A stretch of DNA of 33,879 nucleotides from NCBI GenBank assembly GCA_028819845.1, contig JAPPKS010000024.1:1-33879 (forward strand). The letters run 5' to 3'. Below the pieces are notes generated by a model. It was not told the DNA's origin. It was given only the letters and a program-made list of their open reading frames with translations, and made no database searches. Positions 6,107 through 24,895 of this stretch are shown here, piece by piece. Numbering within the stretch: the stretch's first letter is position 1; each line of letters begins with the position of its first letter. The position numbers were made by a program, and so were the translations under genes. The DNA is from Candidatus Poribacteria bacterium. Its GTDB lineage: Bacteria > Poribacteria > WGA-4E > PCPOR2b.

Positions 6107-6146
6107 GCTTCTTCTCCTTTTTGATGTCATTTGTTCGATTGCAGGT

Positions 6147-6734
6147 TCATTCCCGCAAGTGTATTCCTCTCATCATGTTATAAATTTCCGTATGAAAACG
6201 ACAGTAAGTTTTCGGATACTTCTCCAAAAACGCCTTCCCCCTCGCAGTGCAAAGGTGGCACCGGGGTTTTCCATCGCCATAATCCACTCCAAAAAAATCG
6301 GTTCCGGGGTGGCAGTTCTTGTCTAGAATAAGCGGTTTACGAGAAAATTTCGATTCGCCTATGTTAGTTCGTTTCCCGCATTCAGGACAGAGTTTGGTAC
6401 TGCATAGGAAAAAATCCATGTAATCTTGATGAAATGGGATGGCGGTGAGAAGTTTGACCCGATAGAATTGCGGAATCTGCTCAAGCGGTAGTTTCTTTTT
6501 GTCCTTGCTTGGGCGAGCATCGTCAACAATTTCGGTCGGCTCAAACTCAACGCCCTCAACCCCCTCACTTTGAAAGGCTTGCTTTAGTTCCTCAATTACA
6601 TAAAGATTCTGTCCAAGGGTCGAGAGTATGCTGCTGACAAAACTGCCTTGACCGATATAGATATTTGTCCAGTGCGATTTGGGCGGCGGGGCGTTTTTAC
6701 GGCGCGATTTTCTCGCAGCCGTATTCCCGTTCAT
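6147..6734 (-). CDS. Double-CxxC protein resembling SitI6-type immunity proteins
   Basis: A 195-residue protein with no signal peptide and a very basic N-terminus (RKSRRKNAPPPKSHW). It has CPECG near 137-141 and CHLC near 179-182, separated by a GTDFFGVDYGDGKP segment. The overall pattern (GVEGVEFEPTEIV, then LPLEQIPQFYRVKL, then CxxCG, then the DFFG segment, then a second CxxC) resembles the Myxococcus double-CXXCG paralog family that includes SitI6 immunity proteins. The cysteines may bind zinc. The only in-frame start overlaps the preceding gene by 38 bases, so translation is probably coupled. The stop lies 40 bases before Rhs1. Motifs are seen; the family match is from memory and moderate; the immunity role is inference. 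Confidence 0.6.
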   Translation of the reverse strand: MNGNTAARKSRRKNAPPPKSHWTNIYIGQGSFVSSILSTLGQNLYVIEELKQAFQSEGVEGVEFEPTEIVDDARPSKDKKKLPLEQIPQFYRVKLLTAIPFHQDYMDFFLCSTKLCPECGKRTNIGESKFSRKPLILDKNCHPGTDFFGVDYGDGKPRCHLCTARGKAFLEKYPKTYCRFHTEIYNMMRGIHLRE

Positions 6735-7305
6735 CGGTCATGACCATCTCGACCGCTCCGCGCCCCGGGATTTTTACTGTGGTCTTCCATGTGCGATGCC
6801 CGGTTTCGGAATAGATGAGCATGGTTGTCGGGTCGATGATGCGTTCGCCATCTCCCACAATCTTCGAGTCGGACACTCCCGGCAGATCTTCCGTTCCAAC
6901 CATGTCGGCGAGGTCTTCCCAGAGGTCGCCCATAAACGCTTTTAGTTCGTCGGCATCGAGTTCGTATGTTACCGAGATGTTCTGAACGAAATCGAGGATC
7001 GGGTTTTTCACCGGCTGTCCGTTTTCGGTCATTGTAAATGATAGGGGCGCAAAGATGATCGAATATCCGTCGGGTTTCTTGTCCACCGTACTTTTGGCTC
7101 TGCCTTCGCTGGTGACAGTGCGCATGCCAAGTGCGCCCATGTCAGTTGTTCGCATGCTCTTGAAGGTTGAAATATAGGCGGGAAAGTCGTCCGGCGGGTC
7201 GAACCGGAAGCGGATCTGCTGCGCCGCGGCGGTGAAAACCGGGGCGCAGCAACACAGAATAAACAGCGAGCCAAGCACGGCTCGCCTAGTTATTGCTGAA
7301 CGCAT
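6697..7305 (-). CDS. Exported protein of unknown function
   Basis: About 202 residues with a cleavable signal (MRSAITRRAVLGSLFILCCC, cleavage near TAAA-QQ). The TRRAVLG stretch resembles a twin-arginine motif, so Tat export is possible. The start is set by AGGAGG at 7312-7317, six bases before the second of two adjacent ATGs (7305). The upstream GTG at 7320 overlaps the preceding stop and is unlikely. The mature part is mostly beta-prone with no cysteine until the C-terminal YGCEKIAP, and I recognise no catalytic motif. The gene lies 11 bases after the lipoprotein gene before it and overlaps the next gene by 38 bases, so it is in the operon. Family unknown. Confidence 0.8.
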   Translation of the reverse strand: MRSAITRRAVLGSLFILCCCAPVFTAAAQQIRFRFDPPDDFPAYISTFKSMRTTDMGALGMRTVTSEGRAKSTVDKKPDGYSIIFAPLSFTMTENGQPVKNPILDFVQNISVTYELDADELKAFMGDLWEDLADMVGTEDLPGVSDSKIVGDGERIIDPTTMLIYSETGHRTWKTTVKIPGRGAVEMVMTDEREYGCEKIAP

Positions 7306-7316
7306 CATTTGCCTCC

Positions 7317-7892
7317 TCACTGCTCCTTTGGTTGCCGCTCGATCACAATAGGTTCCAACCGTGAATAATGCCTATCCCAATTAGCATATTCTAGCCGCAC
7401 TGGAGCCCCGGACGAATCGGGACGGAGAATAAATCTCATATCTTCTGATGAATAGCCGTCAAGATTGTAAAGATGCACCGTGTACACCCGATTTACCTCC
7501 AACGGTTTGGCGGGCACCAACTCTTTGTAACCGGGCGGCACCTCCCCATACCGGATACAGTGTAATGGATGGCTCGCGCGCTTGTCTCTCGGTTGATACT
7601 CCATTCGCCAGAAACACTTGTCATCACCCCGCCAAGGGATTTTGACGCCCAATTCCCGTTGATTGTGTTTTTCTGTTTGCCACAAACGCCATACGGTGAT
7701 ACTGCCAATATACAGCGGATCCGCAATTTGATGTAAATGCTTGGATTTTTCAGATTGATTGTGTAAACAGAACGTGGGGTTGGAAATCTCCGAGTGGGGA
7801 TGCACTGTTATGCGACGTGGTAATTTGTTGCCACAACCACTCAAGATTGCCGCTCCAGTTATTAAGCAAAAAATCAAAACAAGTCTTTTCAT
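7317..7892 (-). CDS. Small envelope lipoprotein, paralog of the next upstream gene
   Basis: A 191-residue lipoprotein. The start is the ATG at 7892 (MKRLVLIFCLITG), chosen because AGAAGGAGA lies just upstream; the 7913 start has no such site. The lipobox is ILSGC. The C-terminal half, YGEVPPGYKE-x-x-PAKPL-...-RFILRPDSSGAPVRLE, closely parallels the gene at 7903-8433, showing a duplication. The YGxxPPGYxxxxPAxPL pattern resembles small proteobacterial lipoproteins annotated as putative T6SS periplasmic immunity lipoproteins; that match is from memory. The gene lies 10 bases after its paralog. Likely role: envelope-anchored immunity or inhibitor protein (inference). Confidence 0.8.
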   Translation of the reverse strand: MKRLVLIFCLITGAAILSGCGNKLPRRITVHPHSEISNPTFCLHNQSEKSKHLHQIADPLYIGSITVWRLWQTEKHNQRELGVKIPWRGDDKCFWRMEYQPRDKRASHPLHCIRYGEVPPGYKELVPAKPLEVNRVYTVHLYNLDGYSSEDMRFILRPDSSGAPVRLEYANWDRHYSRLEPIVIERQPKEQ

Positions 7893-7902
7893 GATTCTCC
7901 TT

Positions 7903-8433
7903 CTAATCATCAACGAAGTACCTTGAGAAGACAGGTTCCAATTTCACCGGCTTGCCACTCTCATCCGCACGGATAACAAAACGAGTCCCGCCTGTTGGAT
8001 AATCATAGCTCAACCCCCAAGCATAGGCTATATAGACCTTTTCAGGTATCAAGGGCAAAGCGGGGTGTTTTTCCTTGTACCCCGGCGGCACTGTTCCATA
8101 CTCGATGGCGGTTACAGGACTCGCCGTGTGTGCCGAGGAATCAGGCTGATATTCAATAAACCAATCTATCACATCCTCGCTTCGCCCCGGCGGGAGTTCT
8201 GAATATCCTGTATCGAGATAAACCTGAAGCCTTCGGATGTGGTCGAACTCGTCTTTGGCGGCTTCATGTTTGCGAACACAGAAGACAGGGGGGATCACGG
8301 TCGATTCTAATGCCGGAGACATCCCCTGCAGACTCATATAACCCCCCTGCATACTGGTAGAACCGAGTAGCACGCAGCCACTGTGAAAACAACAACCAAC
8401 ACTGACAGCGAGCATCACAATGAAGCGTGTCAT
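7903..8433 (-). CDS. Small envelope lipoprotein, paralog of the next downstream gene
   Basis: A 176-residue lipoprotein starting MTRFIVMLAVSVGCCF with lipobox FHSGC. GAGGAG lies nine bases before the ATG. It shares IEYGTVPPGYKEKHPALPL and RFVIRADESGKPVKLE with its downstream neighbour; the N-terminal halves have diverged apart from PPVFCVR/NPTFCLH. It is the older or newer half of a tandem duplication within the operon. As for the paralog, the pattern resembles putative periplasmic immunity lipoproteins. The position, behind an Rhs with a zincin C-terminus and two other lipoproteins, fits an immunity array, but no function is shown by the sequence. Confidence 0.8.
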   Translation of the reverse strand: MTRFIVMLAVSVGCCFHSGCVLLGSTSMQGGYMSLQGMSPALESTVIPPVFCVRKHEAAKDEFDHIRRLQVYLDTGYSELPPGRSEDVIDWFIEYQPDSSAHTASPVTAIEYGTVPPGYKEKHPALPLIPEKVYIAYAWGLSYDYPTGGTRFVIRADESGKPVKLEPVFSRYFVDD

Positions 8434-8451
8434 TTTGAAAGTCTCCTCTAT

Positions 8452-9228
8452 CTAGCGCGGGGCTGCTCTAGTTGTAAAGGAATAATTTTCCAATGCAGGA
8501 ATCCCCCCGAAATCGTCTACTCCAATTTTAACATCATATTTTGTAGAATAATCTAACTGCTCAGTGCCGACAAAATCCCAAGTAACAGCACCAGTGCAAC
8601 TTTTGATGCTATCATTTTCAATATGAGCGGGACTCAGTGTTATTTCGGGGGTAATCTCGCAGAATACCATCTCCACTGGTCTGTTCGATACAACGCGAAT
8701 AAACCGTGTGGTTTTCGGGTCAACGTCTTGTCCTATTGGGTAGTATTCAAGGATTGTTGGGGGGCCAAGGTCAACATCAGGCATCCTATACCACCCGACA
8801 TAAGGATGAGGCTGGACATCTCCATTGACGTTCTGAAAATCACGAATGACCATTGAACCTATATTGTCCAGAAAAAATGCTCGGTAGCATTGATTCCATG
8901 TAATGGTATCAGTGGCTTCGGTCTCTTGAAGTTGAATAGTCGCAATATAAGGACTAGTGCCAAACAAGATACGACCTGAGTTTGGGATAATTGGTTCGTT
9001 GAAAGTGATACGAAACTCTTGCGTTGGAAATCCTAGCTTGCTTAGGTTAACGGCTTCAGTGCGTTGAGCACCGGGGGTTGGATTAACTGCTATCACCCGC
9101 GGGGCGTTTCGCTCTGGCGGTTTGTAGATTCCATTTTCATCATCACCACACCCTATGATACCAAGCATAATGACTATAACCATGAGGCTTGTAACATAGA
9201 TAATCGGGTTGAAATCAATGTATTTCAA
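8452..9228 (-). CDS. Lipoprotein with two Ig-like domains
   Basis: About 258 residues. The best start is TTG at 9228, seven bases after GGAGGG; the in-frame TTG at 9243 overlaps that ribosome site. A membrane segment (IIYVTSLMVIVIML) leads to lipobox GIIGC. Two beta-sandwich modules follow: RVIAVNPTPGAQ...FRITFNEPI (about 45-130), which matches the Big_5/SbsA-type Ig-like pattern, and PPTILEYYPIGQDVDPKT...YSFTTRA (about 155-255). Such domains are usually passive surface-adhesion or spacer folds. The gene begins 113 bases after the propeller lipoprotein and precedes the paired small lipoproteins by 18 bases. Function is not known; its place in the cluster suggests an envelope-facing partner. 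Confidence 0.75.
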   Translation of the reverse strand: MKYIDFNPIIYVTSLMVIVIMLGIIGCGDDENGIYKPPERNAPRVIAVNPTPGAQRTEAVNLSKLGFPTQEFRITFNEPIIPNSGRILFGTSPYIATIQLQETEATDTITWNQCYRAFFLDNIGSMVIRDFQNVNGDVQPHPYVGWYRMPDVDLGPPTILEYYPIGQDVDPKTTRFIRVVSNRPVEMVFCEITPEITLSPAHIENDSIKSCTGAVTWDFVGTEQLDYSTKYDVKIGVDDFGGIPALENYSFTTRAAPR

Positions 9229-9341
9229 CAGAGCACCCTCCAAGCTGTCACTTAATTTCTAATTCCCCCCCATGTTGTAACCATAAAGGATTCGGGGTAA
9301 GGAGCGTACATTCCTGACGAAGCTATATCCACCCGCGCTTG

Positions 9342-10382
9342 TTAGTAACGAATCTTTGTCAGACCTTGATTTATAGGTGTCCATAGATCATGTGCACTGG
9401 AATCTGTTCGTCTGCGAAAGATTCCTGCTCTACCCTCTTCTGCGAATGGGTTACCAAATATGCCGGCATACAGGTATTTTTCCGATACCGCTAACGCGGT
9501 GATGGGTAAATCGCGTAATCCCCAATCTTGCCATGAGACACCGTCCGGTGCGTGAAAGACACCATTACTCGAAGTCCCGGCATAGAGTCCGTTAGTGCCC
9601 GGTTCCGCTATCAACGATACAATACTGGAGCCGGATAGCCCCACATGCGTCCAAGAATCGTCGTTTGCCAAGCGAAAAACACCGTCCCGCGTGCCGGCAT
9701 AGACGGTTGTTCCGGAGACCGCTAACGACGTGACATTTTGTTCCGCCAAGTCGGTGTTTACGGGCGTCCATGAATCACCACTGTCAAGCGAGCGAAAGAC
9801 GCCTTCGCCCTCTGTGCCAGCATAGAGTGTTGCATCAGATATGGCTAATGCACTAATCGGCGGGCCGAGCAAAGCTGTGATTAGTCCATCTTTCTGCCAC
9901 TCGCGGTTGATATAATTCCATGTATGCCCGCCATTAACTGAACAGTATAGCCTGCCATTACTCATACCCGCGTAAATGTTATCATCGGATGCCACCAATG
10001 ACACTGGTGATGCTCCCCCCCAGCGTTTTGTCGTGGAGACGGGAGTGTCGGTCTCGGAGATTCTCGCCCATGTGTCGTTATCTTTGTCTAAGCGATAGAT
10101 TCTCGTGGCGCCAGCATAGATGGTTGTTCCGGACACGGCTAACGACTCAACAAAAAATATGCTTCCGATACGCTGCCACGAACGGCTTCCAGCGTCCAAA
10201 CGGAAAACACCGTCGAAATCAGCGGCGGCATAGACGGAATTTCCCGACACTGCAAAATCCTTAATCCAAAACACATCGTATGGCGTATTGTTGGGCGTAT
10301 TGTTCGGCTCCTCCTGATTTATATCCTCACTACAGCAGACAGAGCACAATGAAATGATTAATAAAAGGATATGCCTCATCAT
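9342..10382 (-). CDS. Beta-propeller (BNR/sortilin-like) lipoprotein
   Basis: A 346-residue exported protein starting MMRHILLLIISLCSVCCSED. A cysteine pair follows the hydrophobic stretch, so lipidation is likely although the lipobox is not canonical. The rest is six to seven propeller blades with the repeated pattern LAVSGTTVYAGT...GVFRxxxxxxSWxxV, typical of BNR or VPS10/sortilin-like propellers. AGAGG lies nine bases upstream. The gene starts 19 bases after the stop of Rhs2, the classic immunity position for the Rhs2 C-terminal domain. The propeller is seen directly. Ligand binding is the family's usual role; inhibition of the Rhs2 zincin is inference. Confidence 0.8.
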   Translation of the reverse strand: MMRHILLLIISLCSVCCSEDINQEEPNNTPNNTPYDVFWIKDFAVSGNSVYAAADFDGVFRLDAGSRSWQRIGSIFFVESLAVSGTTIYAGATRIYRLDKDNDTWARISETDTPVSTTKRWGGASPVSLVASDDNIYAGMSNGRLYCSVNGGHTWNYINREWQKDGLITALLGPPISALAISDATLYAGTEGEGVFRSLDSGDSWTPVNTDLAEQNVTSLAVSGTTVYAGTRDGVFRLANDDSWTHVGLSGSSIVSLIAEPGTNGLYAGTSSNGVFHAPDGVSWQDWGLRDLPITALAVSEKYLYAGIFGNPFAEEGRAGIFRRRTDSSAHDLWTPINQGLTKIRY

Positions 10383-10401
10383 AATTGTGTGCCTCTTTTA
10401 G

Positions 10402-13400
10402 TTAAAGTGGATTGGGGTAGTTTGGCAAAGCAACTGGCAGTAGGGCTGGATTGCGGATTTCGGCAAGCACGCGAGTATAGTGTACATTAACCCAAATGCC
10501 CAAAAACGAGAGATCATTCCATGCGGAGGATTGGGTAATTTCCCCGTCGCGTTTAAGTTTTTTAATTTCGAGGTTATGGTAAGCCAGCCAGTTCCAACCA
10601 GAAATCGCGCTTGTAATCGACCCACTGGCAATCCCCCAACTCACAAAAAACCAGTCTTGCACTGCTTGTGCATGTTCCTCGTTTGTGAGTTCTAAGGTGT
10701 CTAATTGTTGGGTTGTATAATCGTAATCCCCATAACTGCGTTCTCGGTGACGGTTTGTCCATCTTTGCCAGATGTGGGTTGCTTCGTGAATAAAAACCGA
10801 TAACCAGCCGAGGCTTTCCTCCGGGTCATAATCGGCATGTAATTTAATGTCAGTGTCATTTTCAACTCGACCGCCTCCCTCCCATGAGGGAGGTTGAATC
10901 TGGACATCTATAATGTCAATCAGGAAATTTCCCACTTGTTCGCCAAACGTGAATATCAAGGCTGACGCCTCAGTACTATTCACAGGGCGGAGACCGAACG
11001 GGTCAATAAACCTAAGCGGATTATTGTAGGCATACGCATACCAGTTGATGCCGTCTCCGGCGGGGTCACGCTGTGTAAATCTGCCGATATACGGGTCATA
11101 GTATCGCGCTGCGTAGTAGTAGAGTTTAACATCGCTCTCATACTCCTTGCCAGTGAATTTTCGCGGCGTGTCGCCTGTGCCAACCTCAGAACGCACAGCG
11201 CCAAATACATCGTACTCGTAGCGGGCAAGCACGTTCTTGTTATCGTCCGTTAAGACGATGTTACTGCCCAGTGCGTTCGCGTGGTGGTATTCATAGCGTC
11301 CCACCCGATTGTTCGCCAAATCCGTTATCTCAGCGTCGCTCAGGGCGCGGTCATAGATTGACACGTCGTCTAGGTAGCCGTGTAAACGAAGTGAACCGAA
11401 ATATCCTATCCATAACGCCTCGTGCGTCGCCACTAGCGATTCGGTCGCCATCGTCGATTCCGACTCTTTAGTTCCGTCAATGAAGATGTTCAAATCACTG
11501 CCGTCGTACCGAGCCGCCACATGCTTCCATTCGTCCCGCGGGATGGTTGTGCCGCTAGTGACAGTCTTAGTCGTGCCATCAAACAGCAAGTCAAATTGCA
11601 GCGCCCCACTGTCGGTAATCCGGAGTTCGTACCCGTTAGTGGGATTCGACTTCTTGACCAAATATGCGCCGTCCGTTGATGAGCGTTTCACCCAGCAGCT
11701 TATGGTGAGCGTATTGCCCACAAGGTCTAAGGCGTCACTGTCAAGCACTATCACGGCATCGTTCGTCCCATCAAAGAGGAGACTGCCACCGTTCTCGGTA
11801 TTCCACATCTGTGATTCGTAGGCGTTGCAATCGCCAAGCGAGCCGTGATGATAACCGTCAATATCGTGGGCAACGCTGCCACTTCCCTTATCGAAATGCC
11901 AGTACGCCACGGCATCGTGTTTACGGCGGTAGACCACTCCATCGGCGCCGTAGAGGTAACTGGCGGTGATTTTCTTGTTTGCGTCCAACTCCAGCACCGG
12001 CATCAAGCCGTCGTAGAGAAAATAGCGCGTCCCGTGACTATCTGCCACTCTCACACGCTGCCCGCCGCCGTCGTAAGCATAGCTTATCGTCTGCGTAACT
12101 GCGTTGTTCCGGGTTTTCTGTATCTGCTTCAACTGCGAGCCGAACCCGTAAGTGAATGCGTCGGAATCCGTGCCTTCGTTCCGTTGGGTCAGGTTGCCCT
12201 CGGCGTCGTAGGTGTAACTCATCGTCGAAAAGTCGCTATCTTCCGGAACAAGCGACCGGTAGGTCAACTGGTTGCTGTCAGCTGCAATCGTGTAGGCGGT
12301 CGTGCCGTCGATGCTGCTTATTTGTGTTAGCCGGTTGTTCGACTTGTCGTAGGTGTAGTCAACCTGCCCGTCTCCGTAGTCGGCTTTGGTCAAGCGAGAG
12401 AGGTTGTCGTAACAATACATGAAGGTTTTGCTCGTACCGCCGGCGCCGGTGTCGTTCCGCACCAGTTCGGTCACGTTCGACTTCACATCGTAACTGTAGT
12501 CGAGCGAACTCAGCACCGTGGCCTCATCTTTCTTGTAGTTCAGCGTGTCCAAACGGTTGAGCGTGTCGAGCGTTCGATGTGCGGTGATGCCGTTCGGGTT
12601 GGTAGCCGTCTTAATGGCGCCGATGTCGAAGTAGTCATAGCTGGCGCTCTTGACAGTCAGCGCATCCGTCACGGAGAGCAGCCGGTTCGCCTCGTCGTAG
12701 GTATAACTCGCATCGTACACCTTTCCGCCACCTGCGGACGGTTGGATGTACATGCGCGTCCGCATTGAGGCGTCGTCGTATTCGTAGAAGGTCTTGTAAC
12801 CCAACAGCGAATTATCTTGGGTCACCACACGGTTGAGCTGGTCGTGGGTGTAGGTATAGGCATACGTCTCCGAGCCGTCGTTGGTCGTCTGGGTCAGCAC
12901 GTTGTTGCCGCGGTCGTAGGTGTAGCCCACGGATTCACCGGTCTTGTAACTGACTTGCGAGACGCGGTTATAAATATCGTAGGTGTTGCTGACGGCGGGG
13001 TCAGTTTCGGTGCCGGTTTGACTCGTCCACGCCTTCGTAACCTGATCCAGCACATTGTAGCGCGTCTCCACCCAATCGCCGTCCGAAAGCGTCTGCTTCG
13101 TCACCCTGCCCAAAAAATCGCGGGTGTAGTTGGTTATCAAGTTGCGGGCGTCTTTCGTCTGCGAGACATCGCCAATCCCGTCGTAGACCGTTGTGGTCGT
13201 GGCGTATGGCGTCGTCCATTCATCGCCGTTGAAACTGTGCGTTTTAACGACGCGGTTCATGGTGTCGTATTCCATCTTAGCCTGCGCAATCAGCGTACCG
13301 GTCTGCCAGTTGGTTTGACGGACTTGCGTCTGGACGACGTTGCCGTTCTTGTCGTATGTCGGTACCGTGTAGAGGTCATCGGCGGCGCGGCGGGTGTATT

Positions 13401-15324
13401 TCAGCTTGCCGTCCTGCCAGTAAGCGTATTCCGTGCGTCTGCCTTGCGCGTCGATATCCGCAGTTTTCAAACCGAGATTCATATCCCATTCCGAATGGGT
13501 TTGGATAATATGCTCTGCGCTGTCCACGGTGACGGTGGTCTTAAACGTGATTGGATAGGCGTGGTGCGTCGCGTCATAGACAGTCTCGACTACCTTCTCT
13601 TGCGTTGTCCCCGGCATGAACGTCGTTTTGGTGCGGTTGCCGTAGGTGTCGTATTCGTGCGTGGTAACAATGTCACGGTCAACTGCGTGGGGTTGAATGC
13701 CGGTATCGGCTTTGCTGCGCTGCTCCGTCAGATTGCCTTTGTCGTCGTAGCTAAACTCCGTCCTGCGGCCCATCGCATCTATCTGCCAGATGGGGCGGTT
13801 ATACGTGGTCTCGTAGTCCGCCCGCCACTTGCGGAACACATTGCGGCTGTCTGTGGGGTCAAACTGTTCCCACTTTGTGGCATTGCCCATCCGACGGTTA
13901 TGGTCTGGATTCTCACCTTCATAGTAGATTCTGTACCGCCATTTCGGAGTGCTGCTGCCGTACACGCCGTAGATGGCTTGAATAACGTTTCTATTTGAGT
14001 AAGACCATTGCGACCGAGAACGCTCCCACCCGGTCCCCGTGTTGGAGTTGCCGCGCTGTGTGATACTGCCGGAACTCACCGTATAGCTGTAATAATACTT
14101 TGTCCGATGCCGCCGCTCTAAGTCGTTGGCGGGCAAATGGTTGTACGTGTGCGCATTATTGTAGCCGGTGCCGCCCCCGTATCGACGCTCGTATACGATG
14201 GCGCCCAGCGTATCACCCGCGGCGGGAACACCCCGGACGCGCACTTTACTGCCTTTGCCGTAATATGTGTCAATTTCGGTGCGGTAGCCCAGCGCATCCA
14301 CAATCGCCTTAATATAGGCAAATTCGCGGTAGTTATTTGAACTCGACAGGTTGTATTCGTAAGTTAGCGACACGGTGCTACCTCGCGGATCGCCCGTCCC
14401 TAGCTCATAAGACACGCCGGTAAGGCAATTATAATACGTATACGAATTGTAGCTGTTCCTGCGGCTATGGCGGGTATAGCTGTAATTGACTGTCTGATAG
14501 ACAGTGGTTAGCGTCTGCGGCGTGCCCGCGCCATACTGAATCTTAGTAACAAAACGCGGGTAATCACGCGGGTTGACAGCGCCTCCTACGCTGTATCCAT
14601 AGAAAAACTTTAGTATTCGACCCAGCGTATCTTCAACCGCGACCAATCGGGGATAACGACCAGTGTTGTGCGGCGTTTCAGGCGACGCTTCGTAATGCAA
14701 CTTCACACTATTGCCGTGCGGATCCGAAATCTCCGTCAACACATACTTCGTGCTGTTGGCAACCTTCTCAAACTTGTGGCGAATACCGCCGTGGGCGGTG
14801 TAGATATACGCCCATTCCGTGCCGGACTGCTCAAACTTCAACTTGGCACGCACGCCAACTTTCGGGGTAAATGTCGCCCGACTCTCCCAACCCGCTGCAT
14901 TGAGGTTTGAACCGGACGCCTCAAAACTTTGTTTCGTTCCGCTGCCCGTAACTATCGTGACCGTATAGGGGCTCCGTACACGAGTGTATGAGTTAGTCTC
15001 TGAGTTCCATGTCTGGGCATAACCAGACCTCGACCCGCTATACCGGACATCCCATTGATAGGAGTGCCGCCATTTATGCCCCAACTCAGCCGTATCATAC
15101 GGCTTCACCCCTTGAGAATTATAAGTCCGCGTAAACGCAAGCCCCAACCCGCGCCCGGAAACAGCCAAATCCGTATGCGAAAAATAGACGCCGCGGGTCA
15201 GCATATTCACGATGCCGTCTATCTCCTGCGGGCGACGCGGTACGGGGTCGCCAAACTGTGCGACGACCGTATTAGAAAAAACCCATAACAACAAAATTAC
15301 TAACGTAAAAATACTTCTTGCCAT
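10402..15324 (-). CDS. Rhs/YD-repeat polymorphic exoprotein with zincin C-terminus (Rhs2)
   Basis: A 1640-residue exported Rhs protein. The ATG at 15324 has AAAGGAGGA six bases upstream. Signal peptide MARSIFTLVILLLW, cleavage near VVA-QFGDP. The shell parallels Rhs1: N-terminal DLAVSGRGLGLAFTRTYNS, YD repeats to about 1135, a LamG-like jelly roll at about 1137-1338, and the RHS core GRFTQRDPAG...NNPLRFIDPFG near 1413-1446. The ~195-residue C-terminus is different. It carries FIHEATHIWQ with HEATH at 1513-1517, followed about 40 residues later by NEEHAQAVQDW, whose glutamate could be the third zinc ligand. This HExxH...E plan matches Rhs-linked metallopeptidase toxins (HEMTHVWQ...EQQA type). 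It probably acts as a protease in the envelope or outside the cell. A propeller lipoprotein follows after 19 bases. Confidence 0.93.
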   Translation of the reverse strand: MARSIFTLVILLLWVFSNTVVAQFGDPVPRRPQEIDGIVNMLTRGVYFSHTDLAVSGRGLGLAFTRTYNSQGVKPYDTAELGHKWRHSYQWDVRYSGSRSGYAQTWNSETNSYTRVRSPYTVTIVTGSGTKQSFEASGSNLNAAGWESRATFTPKVGVRAKLKFEQSGTEWAYIYTAHGGIRHKFEKVANSTKYVLTEISDPHGNSVKLHYEASPETPHNTGRYPRLVAVEDTLGRILKFFYGYSVGGAVNPRDYPRFVTKIQYGAGTPQTLTTVYQTVNYSYTRHSRRNSYNSYTYYNCLTGVSYELGTGDPRGSTVSLTYEYNLSSSNNYREFAYIKAIVDALGYRTEIDTYYGKGSKVRVRGVPAAGDTLGAIVYERRYGGGTGYNNAHTYNHLPANDLERRHRTKYYYSYTVSSGSITQRGNSNTGTGWERSRSQWSYSNRNVIQAIYGVYGSSTPKWRYRIYYEGENPDHNRRMGNATKWEQFDPTDSRNVFRKWRADYETTYNRPIWQIDAMGRRTEFSYDDKGNLTEQRSKADTGIQPHAVDRDIVTTHEYDTYGNRTKTTFMPGTTQEKVVETVYDATHHAYPITFKTTVTVDSAEHIIQTHSEWDMNLGLKTADIDAQGRRTEYAYWQDGKLKYTRRAADDLYTVPTYDKNGNVVQTQVRQTNWQTGTLIAQAKMEYDTMNRVVKTHSFNGDEWTTPYATTTTVYDGIGDVSQTKDARNLITNYTRDFLGRVTKQTLSDGDWVETRYNVLDQVTKAWTSQTGTETDPAVSNTYDIYNRVSQVSYKTGESVGYTYDRGNNVLTQTTNDGSETYAYTYTHDQLNRVVTQDNSLLGYKTFYEYDDASMRTRMYIQPSAGGGKVYDASYTYDEANRLLSVTDALTVKSASYDYFDIGAIKTATNPNGITAHRTLDTLNRLDTLNYKKDEATVLSSLDYSYDVKSNVTELVRNDTGAGGTSKTFMYCYDNLSRLTKADYGDGQVDYTYDKSNNRLTQISSIDGTTAYTIAADSNQLTYRSLVPEDSDFSTMSYTYDAEGNLTQRNEGTDSDAFTYGFGSQLKQIQKTRNNAVTQTISYAYDGGGQRVRVADSHGTRYFLYDGLMPVLELDANKKITASYLYGADGVVYRRKHDAVAYWHFDKGSGSVAHDIDGYHHGSLGDCNAYESQMWNTENGGSLLFDGTNDAVIVLDSDALDLVGNTLTISCWVKRSSTDGAYLVKKSNPTNGYELRITDSGALQFDLLFDGTTKTVTSGTTIPRDEWKHVAARYDGSDLNIFIDGTKESESTMATESLVATHEALWIGYFGSLRLHGYLDDVSIYDRALSDAEITDLANNRVGRYEYHHANALGSNIVLTDDNKNVLARYEYDVFGAVRSEVGTGDTPRKFTGKEYESDVKLYYYAARYYDPYIGRFTQRDPAGDGINWYAYAYNNPLRFIDPFGLRPVNSTEASALIFTFGEQVGNFLIDIIDVQIQPPSWEGGGRVENDTDIKLHADYDPEESLGWLSVFIHEATHIWQRWTNRHRERSYGDYDYTTQQLDTLELTNEEHAQAVQDWFFVSWGIASGSITSAISGWNWLAYHNLEIKKLKRDGEITQSSAWNDLSFLGIWVNVHYTRVLAEIRNPALLPVALPNYPNPL
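10985..15324. repeat. Long imperfect direct repeat, copy 2 (Rhs shell)
   Basis: Partner of 1790-6106. The match ends within a few codons after YAYNNP of the RHS core, where the two genes switch to unrelated C-terminal domains. Confidence 0.85.
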
Positions 15325-15342
15325 GTTGTTCCTCCTTTAAAT

Positions 15343-15418
15343 GCAGTGCCAGTAGCCAGGGGTTAGTAACCCCTAAGACGCTTTTTCTGGCTGCTGGCCG
15401 CCGGCCACTGACCACTGC
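15343..15418. repeat. 76-bp palindromic element between genes
   Basis: The outer arms GCAGTGCCAGTAGCC (15343-15357) and GGCCACTGACCACTGC (15403-15418) are imperfect inverted repeats. Inside is a perfect palindrome AGGGGTTAGTAACCCCT (15358-15374). It almost fills the gap between the upstream CDS stop (15420) and the Rhs2 ribosome site. It could be a small mobile palindrome, or an mRNA structure setting Rhs2 expression apart from the upstream genes. There is no U-tract typical of an intrinsic terminator. Confidence 0.6.
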
Positions 15419-15419
15419 T

Positions 15420-16541
15420 TTATTCCGGAATCGGGGGACTTCCGCCGCCGTTTTCGCCGTTGCCGCCGTTCGTGGTTCCGACCGGTTCTATCAAGTCTGA
15501 ACCGCGATCCTCAAGTATTAACAGCAACGCATCCGCCTGTTCGGTATCGCCGCCGGACTCCGAGGTCTGCACCGCGTTCCACAACGCCAGGTCTATTAAC
15601 CCGTCGAATCGGGTTTGGGCAGCCGTCAATGCCTCGGCACGCTGTCCCTCGTCGTCCGGATGCAATGCGGCAAACACGCCGGAAAACACCGTATCTTCAC
15701 GCACCACGCCGGCGGCTTGTGCGTATAACTCAGAAGCGCGTAACTGCGCCGCCGGTACGTAGAAGCCGTCCTCCTTAATCCACTTCGCCTCAGTCATTAA
15801 CTCTTGCACCTGCATAACATTGGCTTCAATCGCCAACGGGTGCGTCGGGTAGTCTAACAAAAACTGCGCATAAGAGACCGCGTTAGCCGCGGTAAAGGCG
15901 GTGCGTGTCAGTTCCAAAGCGTCAAACCACGCCTCTCCGTCGTTGTGGTTGCAGACACACCACACCCTAAGCTGCGCCGCATCTGCGGGCGGCAACGCAC
16001 TCACAGTCACAGTTGACCAGTCGTTGTCGCCTACCGGCAGCATGCGCGAATCGGACGAGGTGAGTACATCTCCATCTTGGTTGAGCCAAGCTATTGCAAG
16101 ATAGACCTCGCCGTTGTTTGCCACTGTAGCAACTTTACCGGTCAGCGTGTACCACTGAAATCCTGCGCCCTCAATCGCAAGCGCGTCGCTCGACCATCTG
16201 CCGTAGAAATAGCGGGTAAAACCCACAGAGATGCTGCGTTCTCCCAACAAGGCAATTTCGCTGTCCCAATTGTAGTGATGACCAACATCAGGGGCTAACG
16301 GCGTCCAGTTGTCTGGGGCATCGGTGCCCGTCTCGAATGAAGCGTTGAGAAGGTCTACGGCGGCACTCTCCGGTATCGGATTCACTGAATCTTCTTGACC
16401 GGGGTTGACATTTCCTCCTCCACTTGTACCAGTGTTGCCGCCGCCGTTATCCTCTCCGCCGGGAATGCCTTGCGCGTGGAGTGACAAGGACGAAAAAATT
16501 AGGGTCAAAGGTAAAATGATTGTCAAGAAACGAAATAGCAT
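15420..16541 (-). CDS. Secreted protein with jelly-roll (CBM-like) domain
   Basis: A 373-residue exported protein. The start is the ATG at 16541 (MLFRFLTIILPLTLIFSSLSLHAQG, cleavage after HAQ or HA), with GGAGG nine bases upstream; the longer frame to 16622 is not needed. A Gly/Asn-rich linker precedes a module LLNASFETGTDAPDNWTP...WFDALELTRT (about 62-205) with the FE-x-n-W and closing D-x-L-x-L pattern of carbohydrate-binding-module-like jelly rolls. The second half is helical (YAQFLLDYPTHPLAIEANVMQVQELM) and may be a TPR-like or coiled region. The tail is Gly-rich and ends SPPIPE. It lies 47 bases after the pilOP-like gene and before Rhs2, so it may be a substrate or accessory of the secretin apparatus (inference). 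Confidence 0.8.
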   Translation of the reverse strand: MLFRFLTIILPLTLIFSSLSLHAQGIPGGEDNGGGNTGTSGGGNVNPGQEDSVNPIPESAAVDLLNASFETGTDAPDNWTPLAPDVGHHYNWDSEIALLGERSISVGFTRYFYGRWSSDALAIEGAGFQWYTLTGKVATVANNGEVYLAIAWLNQDGDVLTSSDSRMLPVGDNDWSTVTVSALPPADAAQLRVWCVCNHNDGEAWFDALELTRTAFTAANAVSYAQFLLDYPTHPLAIEANVMQVQELMTEAKWIKEDGFYVPAAQLRASELYAQAAGVVREDTVFSGVFAALHPDDEGQRAEALTAAQTRFDGLIDLALWNAVQTSESGGDTEQADALLLILEDRGSDLIEPVGTTNGGNGENGGGSPPIPE

Positions 16542-16588
16542 GGTTAAACCTCCAAAATCGTGTTTAGTGGTTAGTGAAATAATTGTTC

Positions 16589-17512
16589 CTATTTTAACGT
16601 TGCGCCGTTGTCCGGCGACCACAATCTCAATTCATGCCGTTGCGTGCCGCGTTTCACCAATACACGCTGCGGGTGAATTGAGAGGATAGCTGTGCCGGCA
16701 AATTCTTCGCCGACAGATGCCGACAGCCGTCTGCCGCCGTGATTCAATATGGCTATCGGGTTTACCTCGTTCCATAAGATGCCGGTCAATGTGGGTAAAG
16801 GCGTTTCAGTAACAGGGCTTTCGGCTGTGTTCGATTGCGGTGCAGTCGCGTCAAACGCGAACGGATTGCGTTTGACGGAATATCTCTCTATCGCTGCCAT
16901 CTCAATCAGTGGCGAGTGACTAGTGGAGAGTGGAGAGTTAAGGAATTGCTCTCCACTCATCACTCTCCATTCTCCACTGTCTCTTTTGTGCATCGGTGAG
17001 ATCGTCAAACTCATCCGCAACGGGGTCAGTTGCCGTTTGCGTTGATAGAGCCGTACCTCCTCAATTCGCACCTTCGGGATTATCCGTTCTACGACCGACA
17101 GAAGGGTTAAAAAGCCCGCGTAGTTGCCTGAGACGGTCAATTGCCGCGGAAGCGCGCCATATTCGCCGCGATGCCATTCGCGCAATTCCTCGACGCCGAC
17201 AAGCGAGGCGGAAGGCTCCGAATCTTCTGCCAGCGACAACTTATCCGAAACTGTCCCAATCGCCGGTAGAAGCTGATCCGGATTCTTCCAAATCAACTCG
17301 GTCTCTAATGCGCGCAACTTTGCTTCGGCATCGGCGACTTGCCCACGCCTCTTTTCGTAAGCAGTTTTAATATGCGCCGTCTCGACTTGCGCCAAGTCTC
17401 GCTCCGTCTCGACGGCTCGCTGCCATCGGAAAAACTGAATCACCAGCGTGACAGACAGGATAACGACTGCTAAAAAGAGGGCACTTGACCGTACCATCAT
17501 TCGTCCGCACAT
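16589..17512 (-). CDS. PilO-PilP-like fusion, inner-membrane assembly protein
   Basis: A 307-residue protein. One N-terminal membrane segment (about 8-27, SSALFLAVVILSVTLVIQFF) is followed by a coiled coil (about 30-75) and a PilO-like ferredoxin domain (LPRQLTVSGNYAGFLTLLSVVERIIPKVRI, about 120-175). The end (about 230-307, PTLTGILWNEVNPIAILNHGG...VGEEFAGTAILSIHPQRVLVKRG) has the pattern of the PilP/GspC homology domain that contacts secretin N0. In type IV pili and T2SS these parts are separate proteins forming a periplasmic bridge to the secretin. About 25 residues between the halves (near 178-201) come from an inserted palindromic repeat. The gene starts two bases after the pilMN-like stop, with AAGGAG upstream. 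Fold assignment is from pattern; the fusion is seen. Confidence 0.75.
   Translation of the reverse strand: MCGRMMVRSSALFLAVVILSVTLVIQFFRWQRAVETERDLAQVETAHIKTAYEKRRGQVADAEAKLRALETELIWKNPDQLLPAIGTVSDKLSLAEDSEPSASLVGVEELREWHRGEYGALPRQLTVSGNYAGFLTLLSVVERIIPKVRIEEVRLYQRKRQLTPLRMSLTISPMHKRDSGEWRVMSGEQFLNSPLSTSHSPLIEMAAIERYSVKRNPFAFDATAPQSNTAESPVTETPLPTLTGILWNEVNPIAILNHGGRRLSASVGEEFAGTAILSIHPQRVLVKRGTQRHELRLWSPDNGATLK
16922..16978. repeat. Palindromic repeat inserted in frame in the pilOP-like gene
   Basis: The arms AGTGGAGAGTGGAGAGT (16922-16938) and ACTCTCCATTCTCCACT (16962-16978) are 17-base inverted repeats with one mismatch. A further CTCTCCACT unit lies between them. The reading frame stays open through it and yields SGEWRVMSGEQ...NSPLSTSHSPL, low-complexity peptide unlike the flanking PilO and PilP parts. 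Confidence 0.85.
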
Positions 17513-17514
17513 TA

Positions 17515-18921
17515 TTATTCTCCTTCAACAGAGGTCAGAGCCAGTGTAAACTCCAACCTCCGATTGCCGTCGATAAGCGTCGGTTCAGTCTTGACCTGGC
17601 GGACAGATGCGAATTGCGATTGTGTGACCAGGGCAGCCCGATACGCATTTATCTCCGCTTGGCTTGGCGCAACTCCCACTACCAACAGCTCTTTGCGAGC
17701 ATCAAAATCGGCGCGAGCTTTCGACGATTTCGGCTGCGAAACCGTTTTGATTTCCGTGAGCCGTACCGACGCCGGGATTGGATTGGCTAACTGAACCAAC
17801 CGCTCAGCCAACGGCGGAAATTGACGCTTCCCCCACGCCAGTTGCGCAAGCGACTTCTGATGAGCGGCATGTCGCTCACCCAACGATTCGGTTTCAGCCT
17901 GTAATCGTTTCATCGCCGACCGGTCTAAACGCATCGTGTGGATATTTGCATGCTTTGATTGAATCCAATCGTAAAGCTTTACATTAGCACCGGCTAGCAT
18001 CAGCATCGCTGCGATTGGAATCGCTTGCATCAATCGACGCTTTCGCCTTAGCTTCTGCTGCAAAGTTTTCGCGGCAAGCACCGGCTCGAGTAGGTTCAAC
18101 CGAATCGAATCCGCCCGTCCGGATTCTTGCATCGGTTTCGATAGTGCAGCCGCCCAATCGAAACTAGATTCCGTAACTTCAACCCCAAACTGTTCCGCCA
18201 GCTGATTGGCGGTTAATACGGATGAGCCGCGAAACAGGACAATCCGTGTCAGAGGCGCATCCCTCGGATTCGGACAGTTGACAAGGCTTTGCCGAATCGT
18301 CCGCAACAGTTGGCTGGCATCTCCGAAAAAAAAGCTGCGTCCTAAGCAGAGGTCGCCCGAATCGACAACAGCCAAATCACACATAGCGCCGTCTATATGC
18401 ACGCCGCACATTCGATTCGAACCATACCAGAGCAGTTGATTCGCTACCGTCACCGATTGCGGGCTAAGATAGATTAAATCAACTCCGGCAAGCTGCTCGA
18501 AGAATGACACGAGCCTGCCCTTCCGCATCCAAGCGATTAAGAGCGTCTTCGGGCTCAACAGTTGAAAATCGTAAGCTGCTCCACCAAGCGCGATAGGGAT
18601 GTAGGTCTCATTCTCCAGTAGAGTTTTAACCGCAAGGTTTTGCATCTGTGGATCAGCTTGCGGGATTGCATTCGGCAACTCAATCCATTTCAGCAGTATC
18701 TCGCTGCTCGACAGTGAAATTAATACCGGTTTTGACTTTGCGTCCGCAAGCAACTCACGCACCACGTCCGCAAGGTCGGGGTAAGATAACGGGTCACTTA
18801 TTGCGTCGTCCGCGGTCAATTGCCGCGAATCCGACTGAACACACGTCCAACGTCCACTGCCCCACACCATATCGGATTTTCGAATTGTCCTATCAGTTAT
18901 CTGTAAACAGATGCGATTCAT
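17515..18921 (-). CDS. PilM-PilN (GspL-like) fusion, inner-membrane assembly protein
   Basis: A 468-residue protein. Residues 1-265 form an actin-like PilM/GspL cytoplasmic domain (VLISLSSSEILLKWIELPN near 67-86, YDFQLLSP, VHIDGAMCDLAVVDSGDLCLGRSF near 173-197). At about 272 comes IRLNLLEP, matching the INLLP-type motif by which PilN binds PilM. Then follow a basic stretch, one hydrophobic segment (about 297-318), a coiled coil (about 325-365) and a PilN-like periplasmic ferredoxin domain with SVRLTEIKTV and LLVVGVAPSQAEINAYRAAL. In type IV pili PilM and PilN are separate; the fusion resembles GspL of T2SS. The start overlaps the secretin gene by 29 bases, so expression is coupled. No ATPase or pilin gene is adjacent. 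Confidence 0.8.
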   Translation of the reverse strand: MNRICLQITDRTIRKSDMVWGSGRWTCVQSDSRQLTADDAISDPLSYPDLADVVRELLADAKSKPVLISLSSSEILLKWIELPNAIPQADPQMQNLAVKTLLENETYIPIALGGAAYDFQLLSPKTLLIAWMRKGRLVSFFEQLAGVDLIYLSPQSVTVANQLLWYGSNRMCGVHIDGAMCDLAVVDSGDLCLGRSFFFGDASQLLRTIRQSLVNCPNPRDAPLTRIVLFRGSSVLTANQLAEQFGVEVTESSFDWAAALSKPMQESGRADSIRLNLLEPVLAAKTLQQKLRRKRRLMQAIPIAAMLMLAGANVKLYDWIQSKHANIHTMRLDRSAMKRLQAETESLGERHAAHQKSLAQLAWGKRQFPPLAERLVQLANPIPASVRLTEIKTVSQPKSSKARADFDARKELLVVGVAPSQAEINAYRAALVTQSQFASVRQVKTEPTLIDGNRRLEFTLALTSVEGE

Positions 18922-21256
18922 CGCTTTTAATCACCTTCGGTTGGATAATCACAATTAACTCCGTCTGCTCAACCGTGGTCTCCTTTGACGTAAACAGGAG
19001 CCCGCCCAACAACGGAATTCGACTCAGAATTGGAACACGGCTAACTTCTTGTATCTCCTTCTCCTGGAGCAACCCGCCAATCACGACAACACCCCGATCG
19101 GCGACGCTGATTGTCGTCTGTATCAGGCGTTGATCCAACGACGATTCTTCCCGAGATACCTGGTCTGCGTTCCGAATAGCAAGTTGGATTGCCATCGTGA
19201 CTTCTCCGGACGCGCCGATAACGGGAGTCAATTCCAGCAGAATCCCGGTTTCAATCGTGAACAGGCTGCGATAGATTGAAGGCGCATACCCGCCATAAGT
19301 TGCAACCGCCGGGGTTGTCGAAGGCTCGCCAACACCAATCGTCGGGTAGATTGGGTTGTTAGTCTCGAACAGATGCTTCCCGCCAATATCAATCGATGCC
19401 TTCTCGCCATTCACCACAGCCAGCGACGGATTTGCGAGCACCTTGCCACGGTTCTGTTCAACTAACGCAGCCAGTTTCGCGCTAAACGCCGCAGGCACAC
19501 TCGCCATCGAGTCAAAACTTAACCCAAATCCATCCTTGATTTCAATTGACGTCCGGTTGTCTACCGCGCCGACGGTAAGCCCTAATTCATCGCGGTTGTC
19601 CTTCGTCAATTCCAAGAGGTAAAGCTGAATCATCGCCTGCGGTTGAGGCACGTCAATCGTTTCCAGATATTTCCGAAATGCGTCAATCCGCGCAGCCGAA
19701 CCCGTCACTAGCAACGCGCTCCTGTCCGTAAGCGGGCTGATGTTCACTTTCAGAGGCGCAGGCAACAATTCCATGGCTTTCGGAACTGCGAGATAGTTCA
19801 GCGCAATCAACGCAGATTCCGAAAAGGGCGCTTTCATTTCAGATCCGATAATCAGCATTTGTTTGGCGTGCGGATTTGATTCCGCCCATTTGTACTCGTA
19901 GCTTGACCCCAAAAACAGCGCCGACAGGACCGAATCCAACGTCGCACCCATTTGGCGCAACGTAACTGTCTCGGTCGATGGACTCGGCGGCGGGTCGGGA
20001 ACGCTACGCTGAATCGTAGACCCCGATGAATTTGACGGCTCCGGTTCCAAATCCGAACCGTCCAAAAACACCATATCAAAACCCGCCGCGACCGAAAGCT
20101 CGCGCACCGCATCGAAACGAGGCGCATTCAATAGGTCTACGCTCAGCCGTCCGGTCTCCCTGTCCACTTCGACCGCTATGGCGCCGTTCCCCTCTCGACC
20201 GCGTATCGCATCGTCCTCGGTGTCCAGTTCTAGCAAGAACCGCTCCGCCTCGCTTACCAACTGCCGTGACCCCACAACTGTCACCGTGTTGTGCGACGCC
20301 GACACCACGACATTTTGCTTGGGGATGTGAATCGGCAGCAGGTTGAGAACCGTGTCCGCCACAAGGTGCTTTAACCAGATAGTCTTGCGCTCAATCAGCG
20401 GATTCACTACATCGGGTTTAATTTCAGGTTTGCCAAAGAAGTGCAAATCATCGACTTGACGATACGTAAAGCCCGTCATCACTGCCAAGTCCGCTAATAG
20501 TTCCGAAACGGTTCGGTTATCCAGACGCAACGTAACTTGGCGCTTCATGTCCCCGACAACGGACAGGTTAATTCTTGTACGCGCAGCCAACTCCGACAGC
20601 AGCAAACTCAAACTAGCGCCTTCAGCCGCAATCGAAACAACGCCGTCCGTAATCAGCATCGTCAATCCCGATTCCCGCAGTTTACGCGGTGGTTCGACAC
20701 GGTAGATGCCTTCTAAATCCTGAAGTGTGAAGTCCGCCAACAACACACGCAACGCGGATTCCAACGGTTCAGAACGCAGATGCGCAGTCACCTGCCCAGT
20801 CAAGTTGGATGCGCTCGATATGCTAATACCCGACGACGCTAAAGCACGAACCACATCATTCACATCAACACGGATTGCGTCAACCGTCAGGCGGCCTTCG
20901 GAAACGCTCAACGATAGACCGCGAGCCATTTGTGCGTCCTGACCGATAAAGTAGATGCCGCCGCGCTTCTCAAGCGTAAAACCGCGAGGCTCCAACAACG
21001 CACGCAACCCCGATTCTAGCGGAACGACGCTCAGGTTCGCCGTGAGCGTCACGCTTGGCGCTATCACATCCAGTCCCGCAAGGTTCACACCCTTCTGGTT
21101 CGCTAGATTGCCCAATACGTCCCGTAATCCGGCGTCGCGGCAACTCAGGCTGAAAACCGGCTCGTCCGGTTCGGCATTCCCGCATGGCAACAGGTATACC
21201 CCGCCCACGGCGCAGACCAGCAACAAAAAAGTCAAAAGCCGAATCGGTCTAGTCAT
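18893..21256 (-). CDS. Secretin (PilQ/GspD-type outer-membrane channel)
   Basis: A 787-residue secretin that would form the outer-membrane pore. The start is the ATG at 21256 (MTRPIRLLTFLLLVCAVGGVYLLPC), a clear signal peptide; the frame continues to 21400 but lacks a good site there. After the signal come three STN/N0-like modules (about 35-105, 120-200, 205-285; each with DV-x-x-V-L-x-x-L...VPLESGLRALL), an N1 module with IWLKHLVADTVLNLLP, a fourth STN-like module (about 375-490), a second N1 (ALIALNYLAVPKAMELLP), then the secretin core with GKVLANPSLAVVNGEKA and the hallmark RVPILSRIPLLGGLLF...TELIVIIQP. No AMIN domain is evident. It is the first gene of the long minus-strand block and probably receives the PilP-like domain at N0. 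Confidence 0.92.
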   Translation of the reverse strand: MTRPIRLLTFLLLVCAVGGVYLLPCGNAEPDEPVFSLSCRDAGLRDVLGNLANQKGVNLAGLDVIAPSVTLTANLSVVPLESGLRALLEPRGFTLEKRGGIYFIGQDAQMARGLSLSVSEGRLTVDAIRVDVNDVVRALASSGISISSASNLTGQVTAHLRSEPLESALRVLLADFTLQDLEGIYRVEPPRKLRESGLTMLITDGVVSIAAEGASLSLLLSELAARTRINLSVVGDMKRQVTLRLDNRTVSELLADLAVMTGFTYRQVDDLHFFGKPEIKPDVVNPLIERKTIWLKHLVADTVLNLLPIHIPKQNVVVSASHNTVTVVGSRQLVSEAERFLLELDTEDDAIRGREGNGAIAVEVDRETGRLSVDLLNAPRFDAVRELSVAAGFDMVFLDGSDLEPEPSNSSGSTIQRSVPDPPPSPSTETVTLRQMGATLDSVLSALFLGSSYEYKWAESNPHAKQMLIIGSEMKAPFSESALIALNYLAVPKAMELLPAPLKVNISPLTDRSALLVTGSAARIDAFRKYLETIDVPQPQAMIQLYLLELTKDNRDELGLTVGAVDNRTSIEIKDGFGLSFDSMASVPAAFSAKLAALVEQNRGKVLANPSLAVVNGEKASIDIGGKHLFETNNPIYPTIGVGEPSTTPAVATYGGYAPSIYRSLFTIETGILLELTPVIGASGEVTMAIQLAIRNADQVSREESSLDQRLIQTTISVADRGVVVIGGLLQEKEIQEVSRVPILSRIPLLGGLLFTSKETTVEQTELIVIIQPKVIKSDESHLFTDN

Positions 21257-21276
21257 CGCTCCAATCTTTGCATCAT
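21253..21276 (-). CDS. Seven-codon leader peptide coupled to the secretin start
   Basis: A very short frame, MMQRLER, follows a strong AGGAGG (21282-21287). Its TGA overlaps the secretin ATG (ATGA). The best ribosome site upstream of the secretin thus serves this mini-ORF, implying translational coupling or a leader. Alternatively GGAG close to the ATG at 21256 is used directly. Seen in sequence; function inferred. Confidence 0.45.
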   Translation of the reverse strand: MMQRLER

Positions 21277-24582: not shown

Positions 24583-24895
24583 AAATTCTCCTTTTTTTTC
24601 CTCATTCATTGGCAGTTACGCAGTTGAACGATGAGGTGTTGTAGTTTGATGCTTCATCACCAACGCGGGGCAAGATGCCCCGCATTCGGCGGGTGTAGTG
24701 TCGGGTCCACCTTGTCAAGGGGGAGAGTGTTCCTAGAGAGGACCATCGCGCTCCTTTTTCAGTCGCTTAATCCTTCCTTATTCGGTCAGTTAATCTCCGC
24801 CCACCATGGGTTTGAAGTCTGAGCATGTCGCGCGACGCCCAATGAAGCGGGTTAATAACTGAAGTGCTAACTCCTATATAAATTTCTCCATATCT
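24583..24895. other. Intergenic region upstream of the metallopeptidase gene
   Basis: About 310 bases that should hold the metallopeptidase promoter. I see one strong palindrome (24665-24683) and no gene with a ribosome site; short frames here have no recognisable content. Confidence 0.5.
24665..24683. repeat. REP-like palindrome
   Basis: GCGGGGCAAGATGCCCCGC is a perfect 8-bp stem with a 3-base loop. It lies about 80 bases upstream of the metallopeptidase start and has no T-run on either side, so it looks like a dispersed palindrome, not a terminator. Confidence 0.65.

What the first reader, a model, noticed from the sequence alone, without database searches (positions are those of the whole stretch)
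6107..21276. Secretin plus fused PilMN and PilOP genes run directly into an Rhs polymorphic-toxin array
The block from 21256 leftward is on one strand with overlaps or short gaps: secretin, PilM-PilN fusion, PilO-PilP fusion, secreted jelly-roll protein, Rhs2, lipoproteins, Rhs1. Secretin/MNOP genes normally belong to type IV pili or T2SS and come with motor ATPases and pilins; none are visible here. The Rhs proteins have Sec signals, so they reach the periplasm and would then need an outer-membrane exit. The inference is a reduced, T2SS-like exit route dedicated to Rhs exoproteins.
Basis: partly seen in the sequence, partly recalled or inferred. Interest (0 to 1): 0.85.

Follow-up and report, generated by a model that had tools for sequence, protein, structure and literature searches.

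The report
Motorless secretin set beside Rhs genes
In an uncultured bacterium, a spare set of outer-membrane channel genes, related to pilus machinery but lacking its motor, sits directly before genes for giant secreted Rhs proteins; the pairing is real and old in this genome, but the same channel genes occur in relatives that have no Rhs genes, so a dedicated Rhs exporter is possible rather than shown.

Summary
The gene layout is real. A secretin (18893-21256), a PilM-PilN fusion (17515-18921) and a PilO-PilP/GspC fusion (16589-17500) run on one strand into a secreted protein and an Rhs cassette. Two facts missing from the window change the reading. First, the genome holds one complete T2SS (contig C35) with the only GspE-type ATPase and the only GspF. 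Its PilM-PilN gene is fused too, so the motor exists elsewhere and that fusion is ordinary. Second, the trio leans towards the type IVa pilus lineage: homologous secretins in two relatives score best as PilQ, and three relatives with trio-type genes keep PilT. Here PilT is absent. The tie to Rhs is mixed. The secreted-protein/Rhs/lipoprotein cassette recurs on contig C16, with a decayed fragment of this same secretin about 0.35 kb upstream, so the linkage predates that duplication. Yet the other two genomes with PilMN genes have no Rhs core match, and the C16 cassette persists without an intact trio. Best reading: an orphan pilus-type channel and alignment complex, probably driven by the T2SS motor in trans, that may export the neighbouring Sec-exported proteins. 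'Reduced' is wrong, and 'dedicated to Rhs' holds at most for this lineage.

The parts
18893..21256 (-). Secretin, 787 aa, with several N-terminal STN/N-type domains and a C-terminal pore; PilQ/GspD superfamily
   Evidence: Pfam Secretin 4.9e-32, Secretin_N and STN; NCBIfam GspD 143 bits, PilQ 128 bits, both below cut-off; homologs in G015 (47%), G005 (41%), G050 (64%, pore only), G016 (42%)
17515..18921 (-). PilM-PilN fusion (GspL-like layout): actin-like cytoplasmic domain, membrane helix, ferredoxin-like periplasmic domain; nucleotide-binding motifs lost
   Evidence: Profile vs PDB: PilM 4e-14; AlphaFold pLDDT 76, Foldseek PilM 1e-14, GspL 6e-11; homologs in G016 (two) and G005 only; alignment with the C35 PilM, which keeps its DIG motifs
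16589..17500 (-). PilO-PilP (GspM-GspC HR) fusion, 303 aa: N-terminal membrane anchor, PilO-like core, C-terminal HR domain
   Evidence: T2SSC 0.0012; profile vs PDB GspC 0.003; Foldseek top hits GspC-HR of a GspC-GspD complex, PilO and PilP, on a low-confidence model
15420..16541 (-).
   Evidence: 61% identical paralog immediately before the Rhs gene on C16; no family match; no close homolog in the other 84 Poribacteria genomes searched
10402..15324 (-). Rhs2, 1640 aa: hydrophobic signal-type N-terminus, DUF6531, YD repeats, LamG_3 insert, Rhs core, C-terminal tip with HEATH (zincin-like) motif
6147..10382 (-). Six small secreted/lipoprotein genes between the Rhs genes (asp-box propeller, Big_5 lipoprotein, two lipoproteins, a secreted 207-aa protein, a 195-aa protein with CxxC pairs)
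   Evidence: the Big_5 and two lipoprotein genes recur after the C16 Rhs gene at 63-83% identity
1145..6130 (-). Rhs1, 1661 aa, same architecture as Rhs2 with a different tip
   Evidence: 80% nucleotide identity to Rhs2 over 4.4 kb
149..1129 (-). HEAT-repeat lipoprotein following Rhs1
   Evidence: HEAT_2 6.6e-31; 68% identical copy after an Rhs end on C23
21889..24609 (-). Secreted protein with an HExxH motif (HEFGH) and a FlgD_ig/sorting-type tail, upstream of the secretin on the same strand; possible alternative cargo, separated by 632 bp

Best explanation
The trio is an orphan, pilus-type outer-membrane channel and alignment complex: PilQ-like secretin, PilM-PilN fusion, PilO-PilP/GspC fusion. 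Its ancestors probably worked with a type IVa pilus; this genome has no pilus motor left. The secretin would form the outer-membrane pore, the HR domain of OP would dock on the secretin's N-terminal domains, and MN would anchor the assembly to a cytoplasmic ATPase. The only such ATPase in the genome is GspE of the complete T2SS on C35, so the set most likely borrows GspE/GspF and pseudopilins in trans. Because it sits in one gene string with Sec-exported proteins (the 373-aa protein and Rhs2, then more), and because that linkage predates a duplication of the cassette, these neighbours are its likeliest cargo in this lineage. Shown: gene identities, absence of a second motor in this draft, the old linkage, occurrence of trio genes without Rhs in relatives. 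Inferred: pilus ancestry, motor sharing, cargo.
For: Only one T2SSE ATPase and one T2SSF protein in a 96.6% complete genome, both in the C35 T2SS. Trio identities. Secretin relatives in G015 and G005 score PilQ above GspD (201 vs 188 and 245 vs 205 bits), whereas the C35 T2SS secretin scores GspD 411 and passes its cut-off. G016, G005 and G015 carry PilT above cut-off; G015 has a PilB-like ATPase beside PilC and PilT pieces, and G005 a pilin beside PilT. The trio's ORFs are intact and tightly packed. Secretin relic upstream of the paralogous C16 cassette: 40-42% identity over about 80 aa of the variable N-terminal region, E 4.6e-12, 63.5 bits where 200 shuffles never exceed 25.
Against: G016 and G005 have the PilMN gene but no Rhs core match. 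The C16 Rhs cassette persists without an intact trio. A G016 copy of the trio is decaying (secretin without pore, shifted frames), so such sets can be on their way out. MN has lost the nucleotide-site motifs kept by the C35 PilM, and the two share no significant local similarity, so fit to the C35 motor is unproven. The window secretin itself scores GspD slightly above PilQ.
Confidence: 0.4

Rival explanations
1. The trio is a leftover of a lost type IVa pilus, still open-reading but without a dedicated role; the Rhs cassette merely landed downstream and was later copied together with a piece of the secretin.
For: No PilB/PilT in the genome; the C16 secretin copy is a relic; the G016:C293 copy is degenerate; trio distribution is patchy, MN in 3 of 85 genomes; trio and Rhs dissociate in G016 and G005.
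Against: All three window ORFs (2.4, 1.4 and 0.9 kb) are intact with overlapping or close ends, although the cassette duplication is old (373-aa paralogs 58-61% identical), which suggests selection on the window copy.
Confidence: 0.3
2. The trio is an alternative secretin/platform module of the C35 T2SS for general exoproteins (for example the upstream HExxH protein with a FlgD-like tail), as XphA/XqhA is for Xcp in Pseudomonas; Rhs proteins leave by another route or stay cell-bound.
For: Precedent of an off-locus subunit forming a functional hybrid with Xcp (PMC6567927); a same-strand secreted HExxH protein lies upstream; trio genes occur in G016, which has a T2SS and no Rhs.
Against: The upstream gene is 632 bp away and not found next to the secretin in relatives, whereas the linkage to the Rhs cassette is repeated on C16.
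Confidence: 0.2
3. One reading: a self-sufficient, reduced T2SS-like exit made of the trio alone and dedicated to Rhs proteins.
For: Contiguity with Rhs on one strand and the C16 relic showing old linkage.
Against: No ATPase within the set, a full motor elsewhere, retention of a PilM-type cytoplasmic domain, and the PilMN gene present in two genomes without Rhs.
Confidence: 0.08

Closest known systems
Type IVa pilus secretin and alignment complex (PilQ with PilM, PilN, PilO, PilP)
   Same: Same set of five functions; secretin relatives in G015/G005 score best as PilQ; MN profile and model match PilM best
   Different: Here five functions sit in three genes (MN and OP fused), the secretin comes first, PilM's nucleotide motifs are lost, and no PilB, PilT, PilC or pilin is linked; PilB/PilT are absent from the genome
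Type II secretion system (GspD, GspL, GspM, GspC)
   Same: MN fusion has the GspL layout; OP ends in a GspC-type HR domain; a complete T2SS with its own PilMN fusion is on C35
   Different: Trio lacks E, F and pseudopilins; its secretin does not reach the GspD cut-off while the C35 secretin does
XphA/XqhA (PaQa) of Pseudomonas aeruginosa
   Same: An off-locus secretin plus C-type partner that works as a hybrid with another system's machinery (PMC6567927)
   Different: Window set also brings its own L/M-type parts, leans to the pilus lineage and is linked to Rhs genes; motor sharing is untested here
Akkermansia Amuc_1098-1102 cluster
   Same: Compact cluster with a secretin-type protein (Amuc_1098) and PilM-like and PilO-like proteins (PMC5332112; Amuc_1100 structures among the OP fold hits; Amuc_1098/1101 families match relatives weakly)
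   Different: Low similarity; no Rhs link known to me; MN and OP are not fused there
Rhs / YD-repeat polymorphic exoproteins with a Sec signal (WapA type, from own knowledge)
   Same: Signal-type N-terminus, YD repeats, Rhs core, variable tip
   Different: LamG_3 insert before the core; diderm envelope; accompanied by a specific secreted protein and lipoproteins

Membership tests
Type II secretion system | GspE-type ATPase and GspF encoded with the set | tested here: not met
   Only copies are in the C35 T2SS
Type II secretion system | Pseudopilins (GspG-K) with the set | tested here: not met
   None in the window; present at C35
Type II secretion system | Secretin passes the curated GspD cut-off | tested here: not met
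   143 bits against 351
Type IVa pilus system | PilB and PilT motors in the genome | tested here: not met
   Single PF00437 hit in the whole genome, in the T2SS operon, GspE scoring above PilB; draft is 96.6% complete
Type IVa pilus system | Secretin passes the curated PilQ cut-off | tested here: not met
   128 bits against 284 for the window; 201 and 245 for the closest full-length relatives
Type IVa pilus system | PilM, PilN, PilO and PilP homologs present | tested here: met
   (PilO/PilP part rests on a low-confidence model)
Accessory secretin module sharing another system's motor (XphA/XqhA type) | Secretin plus C-type partner encoded away from a complete system in the same genome | tested here: met
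   C35 T2SS complete; trio on C15
Accessory secretin module sharing another system's motor (XphA/XqhA type) | Functional hybrid with that motor shown | not testable with these tools
   Needs interaction or secretion assays
Rhs exoprotein | YD repeats and Rhs-associated core with variable tip | tested here: met
   RHS_repeat, DUF6531, Rhs_assc_core 1e-20; tips differ between copies
Rhs exoprotein | Toxin activity of the tip with a cognate immunity gene | tested here: inconclusive
   Zincin-like HExxH motifs and weak Peptidase_M91/M76 matches only; no immunity family found

The most novel reading that the evidence does not exclude
A pilus-derived secretin and alignment complex, stripped of its own motor and pilins, has been repurposed as the exit conduit for Sec-exported Rhs exoproteins, powered in trans by the cell's single T2SS motor; one such conduit serves several Rhs cassettes in the genome, which is why the second copy of the channel could decay.
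Probability: 0.22. Interest if true: 0.75.

Novelty: new variant of a known kind. Interest (0 to 1): 0.45.

Why it matters
How Rhs proteins with Sec signals cross the outer membrane of diderm bacteria is poorly known. If a motorless secretin set serves them with a borrowed T2SS motor, secretins would be exchangeable ports rather than fixed parts of one machine, and the route could be tested through HR-secretin and PilM-GspE binding. Even without the Rhs link, the locus looks like a pilus channel module that has outlived its motor.

Tried and rejected
Scan of 85k species' genome contigs with the MN alignment gave only the same three Poribacteria contigs; only one peptide pattern was usable, so this is a lower bound. 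Promoter/terminator scans were no better than shuffles. I first read trio and Rhs as fully dissociated because the C16 cassette has no secretin gene; the relic found and confirmed overturned that. I first filed the trio as a plain accessory T2SS module; the PilQ scores and the PilT/PilB genes of relatives moved it towards the pilus lineage. PDB searches with the 373-aa protein and the Rhs2 tip gave nothing significant. Paper searches found no description of this Poribacteria locus. The overlap of secretin-bearing and Rhs-bearing genomes (2 of 85, hypergeometric P 0.016) is confounded by shared family and not used as evidence.
Full report
What is there. The window is a whole contig (C15) of a draft Poribacteria genome (4.61 Mb, 35 contigs, 96.6% complete; related records are named Candidatus Poribacteria). 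From 21256 leftward on the minus strand lie a secretin, a PilM-PilN fusion, a PilO-PilP/GspC fusion, a secreted 373-aa protein, Rhs2, six small secreted or lipoprotein genes, Rhs1 and a HEAT-repeat lipoprotein. The window's first 133 bases match the 5' ends of Rhs1 and Rhs2, so the array continues past the contig edge; contig C1 also has an Rhs start at its end.

Identities. The secretin is certain (E 5e-32) but meets no curated class cut-off: GspD 143 bits of 351, PilQ 128 of 284. MN is weak in Pfam, but a 4-sequence profile hits Myxococcus PilM at 4e-14, and its model (pLDDT 76) matches PilM at 1e-14 and the GspL cytoplasmic domain at 6e-11. OP matches GspC by profile (0.003). Its model is poor (pLDDT 56), but the best hits are a GspC HR domain from a GspC-GspD complex, PilO and PilP.

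The motor is elsewhere. The genome has one GspE-type ATPase and one GspF, both in a complete T2SS operon on C35: E, F, G and further pseudopilins, K, PilM-PilN, O, C, D. A prepilin peptidase is on C30. The PilM-PilN gene of that T2SS is also one fused ORF and keeps its DIG nucleotide motifs, which the window MN has lost. So the absence of a motor in the window does not mean a reduced system, and the MN fusion is not special.

Lineage. The closest relatives of the window secretin are in G015 (47%), G005 (41%), G016 (42%) and G050 (64%, pore only); identity to the C35 secretin is 24-28%. The full-length relatives in G015 and G005 score PilQ above GspD, whereas the C35 secretin scores GspD 411 against PilQ 200. 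The partial G016 relative scores GspD above PilQ, as does the window secretin, so the class is a leaning, not a proof. G016, G005 and G015 carry PilT; G015 has a PilB-like ATPase next to PilC and PilT pieces; G005 has a pilin next to PilT. This genome has neither PilB nor PilT. I infer that the trio descends from a type IVa pilus channel and alignment complex and was orphaned here.

Link to Rhs. For it: a paralogous cassette on C16 (373-aa protein 61% identical, Rhs, the same lipoproteins at 63-83%) has, about 0.35 kb upstream on the same strand, a fragment of the window-type secretin with three in-frame stops (E 4.6e-12 in the whole genome; 63.5 bits against at most 25 in 200 shuffles). Only three places in the genome match the secretin: the window, C35 and this relic. 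So a secretin-cassette linkage existed before the duplication. Against it: MN homologs occur in only three of 85 Poribacteria genomes, and the two others, G016 and G005, have no Rhs core match. G022 and G001 have Rhs without the trio. The N-terminal half of this Rhs family is confined to this genome at E 1e-15, with decayed pieces in G015 and G022. Contigs around the other trio copies are short (4-6 kb), so their wider context is unknown.

Mechanism. Most likely the secretin forms the pore, the HR domain of OP docks to it, and MN couples the set to a cytoplasmic ATPase, for which GspE of C35 is the only candidate. The precedent is XphA/XqhA, an off-locus subunit forming a functional hybrid with Xcp (PMC6567927). 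Cargo is inferred from position: the Sec-exported 373-aa protein and Rhs proteins, or the HExxH protein upstream. Confidence is 0.4 for this combined model. The main rival is a pilus relic with no dedicated role (0.3).

Verdict. Observation confirmed; interpretation partly supported. New variant of a known kind, interest 0.45.

Noticed in passing
G000:C16:117398-117646 (L036 13405-13641): Decayed fragment of the window-type secretin, three in-frame stops, just upstream of the paralogous 373-aa/Rhs/lipoprotein cassette.
   Followed up: yes
window 1-133; L038 1-124 (contig C1): Contig ends are starts of further Rhs genes; the assembly breaks inside a longer Rhs array.
   Followed up: partly
window 10402-11001; L037 690-1208; L038 3047-3691: Tips of three of four Rhs proteins carry HExxH (HEATH, HELVH, HELSH) with weak Peptidase_M91/M76 matches; the Rhs1 tip is different.
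   Followed up: partly
window 10402-10420: Rhs2 ends in NYPNPL, resembling the start of the YPNPFNP sorting-type tail seen complete at the end of the 21889-24609 protein; possibly a truncated tail or chance.
   Followed up: no
L015 1-2600 (G016:C293): A second trio copy in G016 is decaying: secretin without its pore domain, MN and OP with shifted frames, a transposase-like gene nearby.
   Followed up: partly
L014 2168-5885 (G016:C853): MN and OP follow an alkaline-phosphatase-like gene with no secretin in front.
   Followed up: no
window 6147-6734: 195-aa protein with paired CxxC motifs, no obvious signal peptide and no family match, between secreted proteins; could be an immunity-type or regulatory protein.
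   Followed up: no
window 25940-26467: Short piece of a periplasmic binding protein (Peripla_BP_6, profile 53-220 of 343), probably a gene remnant.
   Followed up: no
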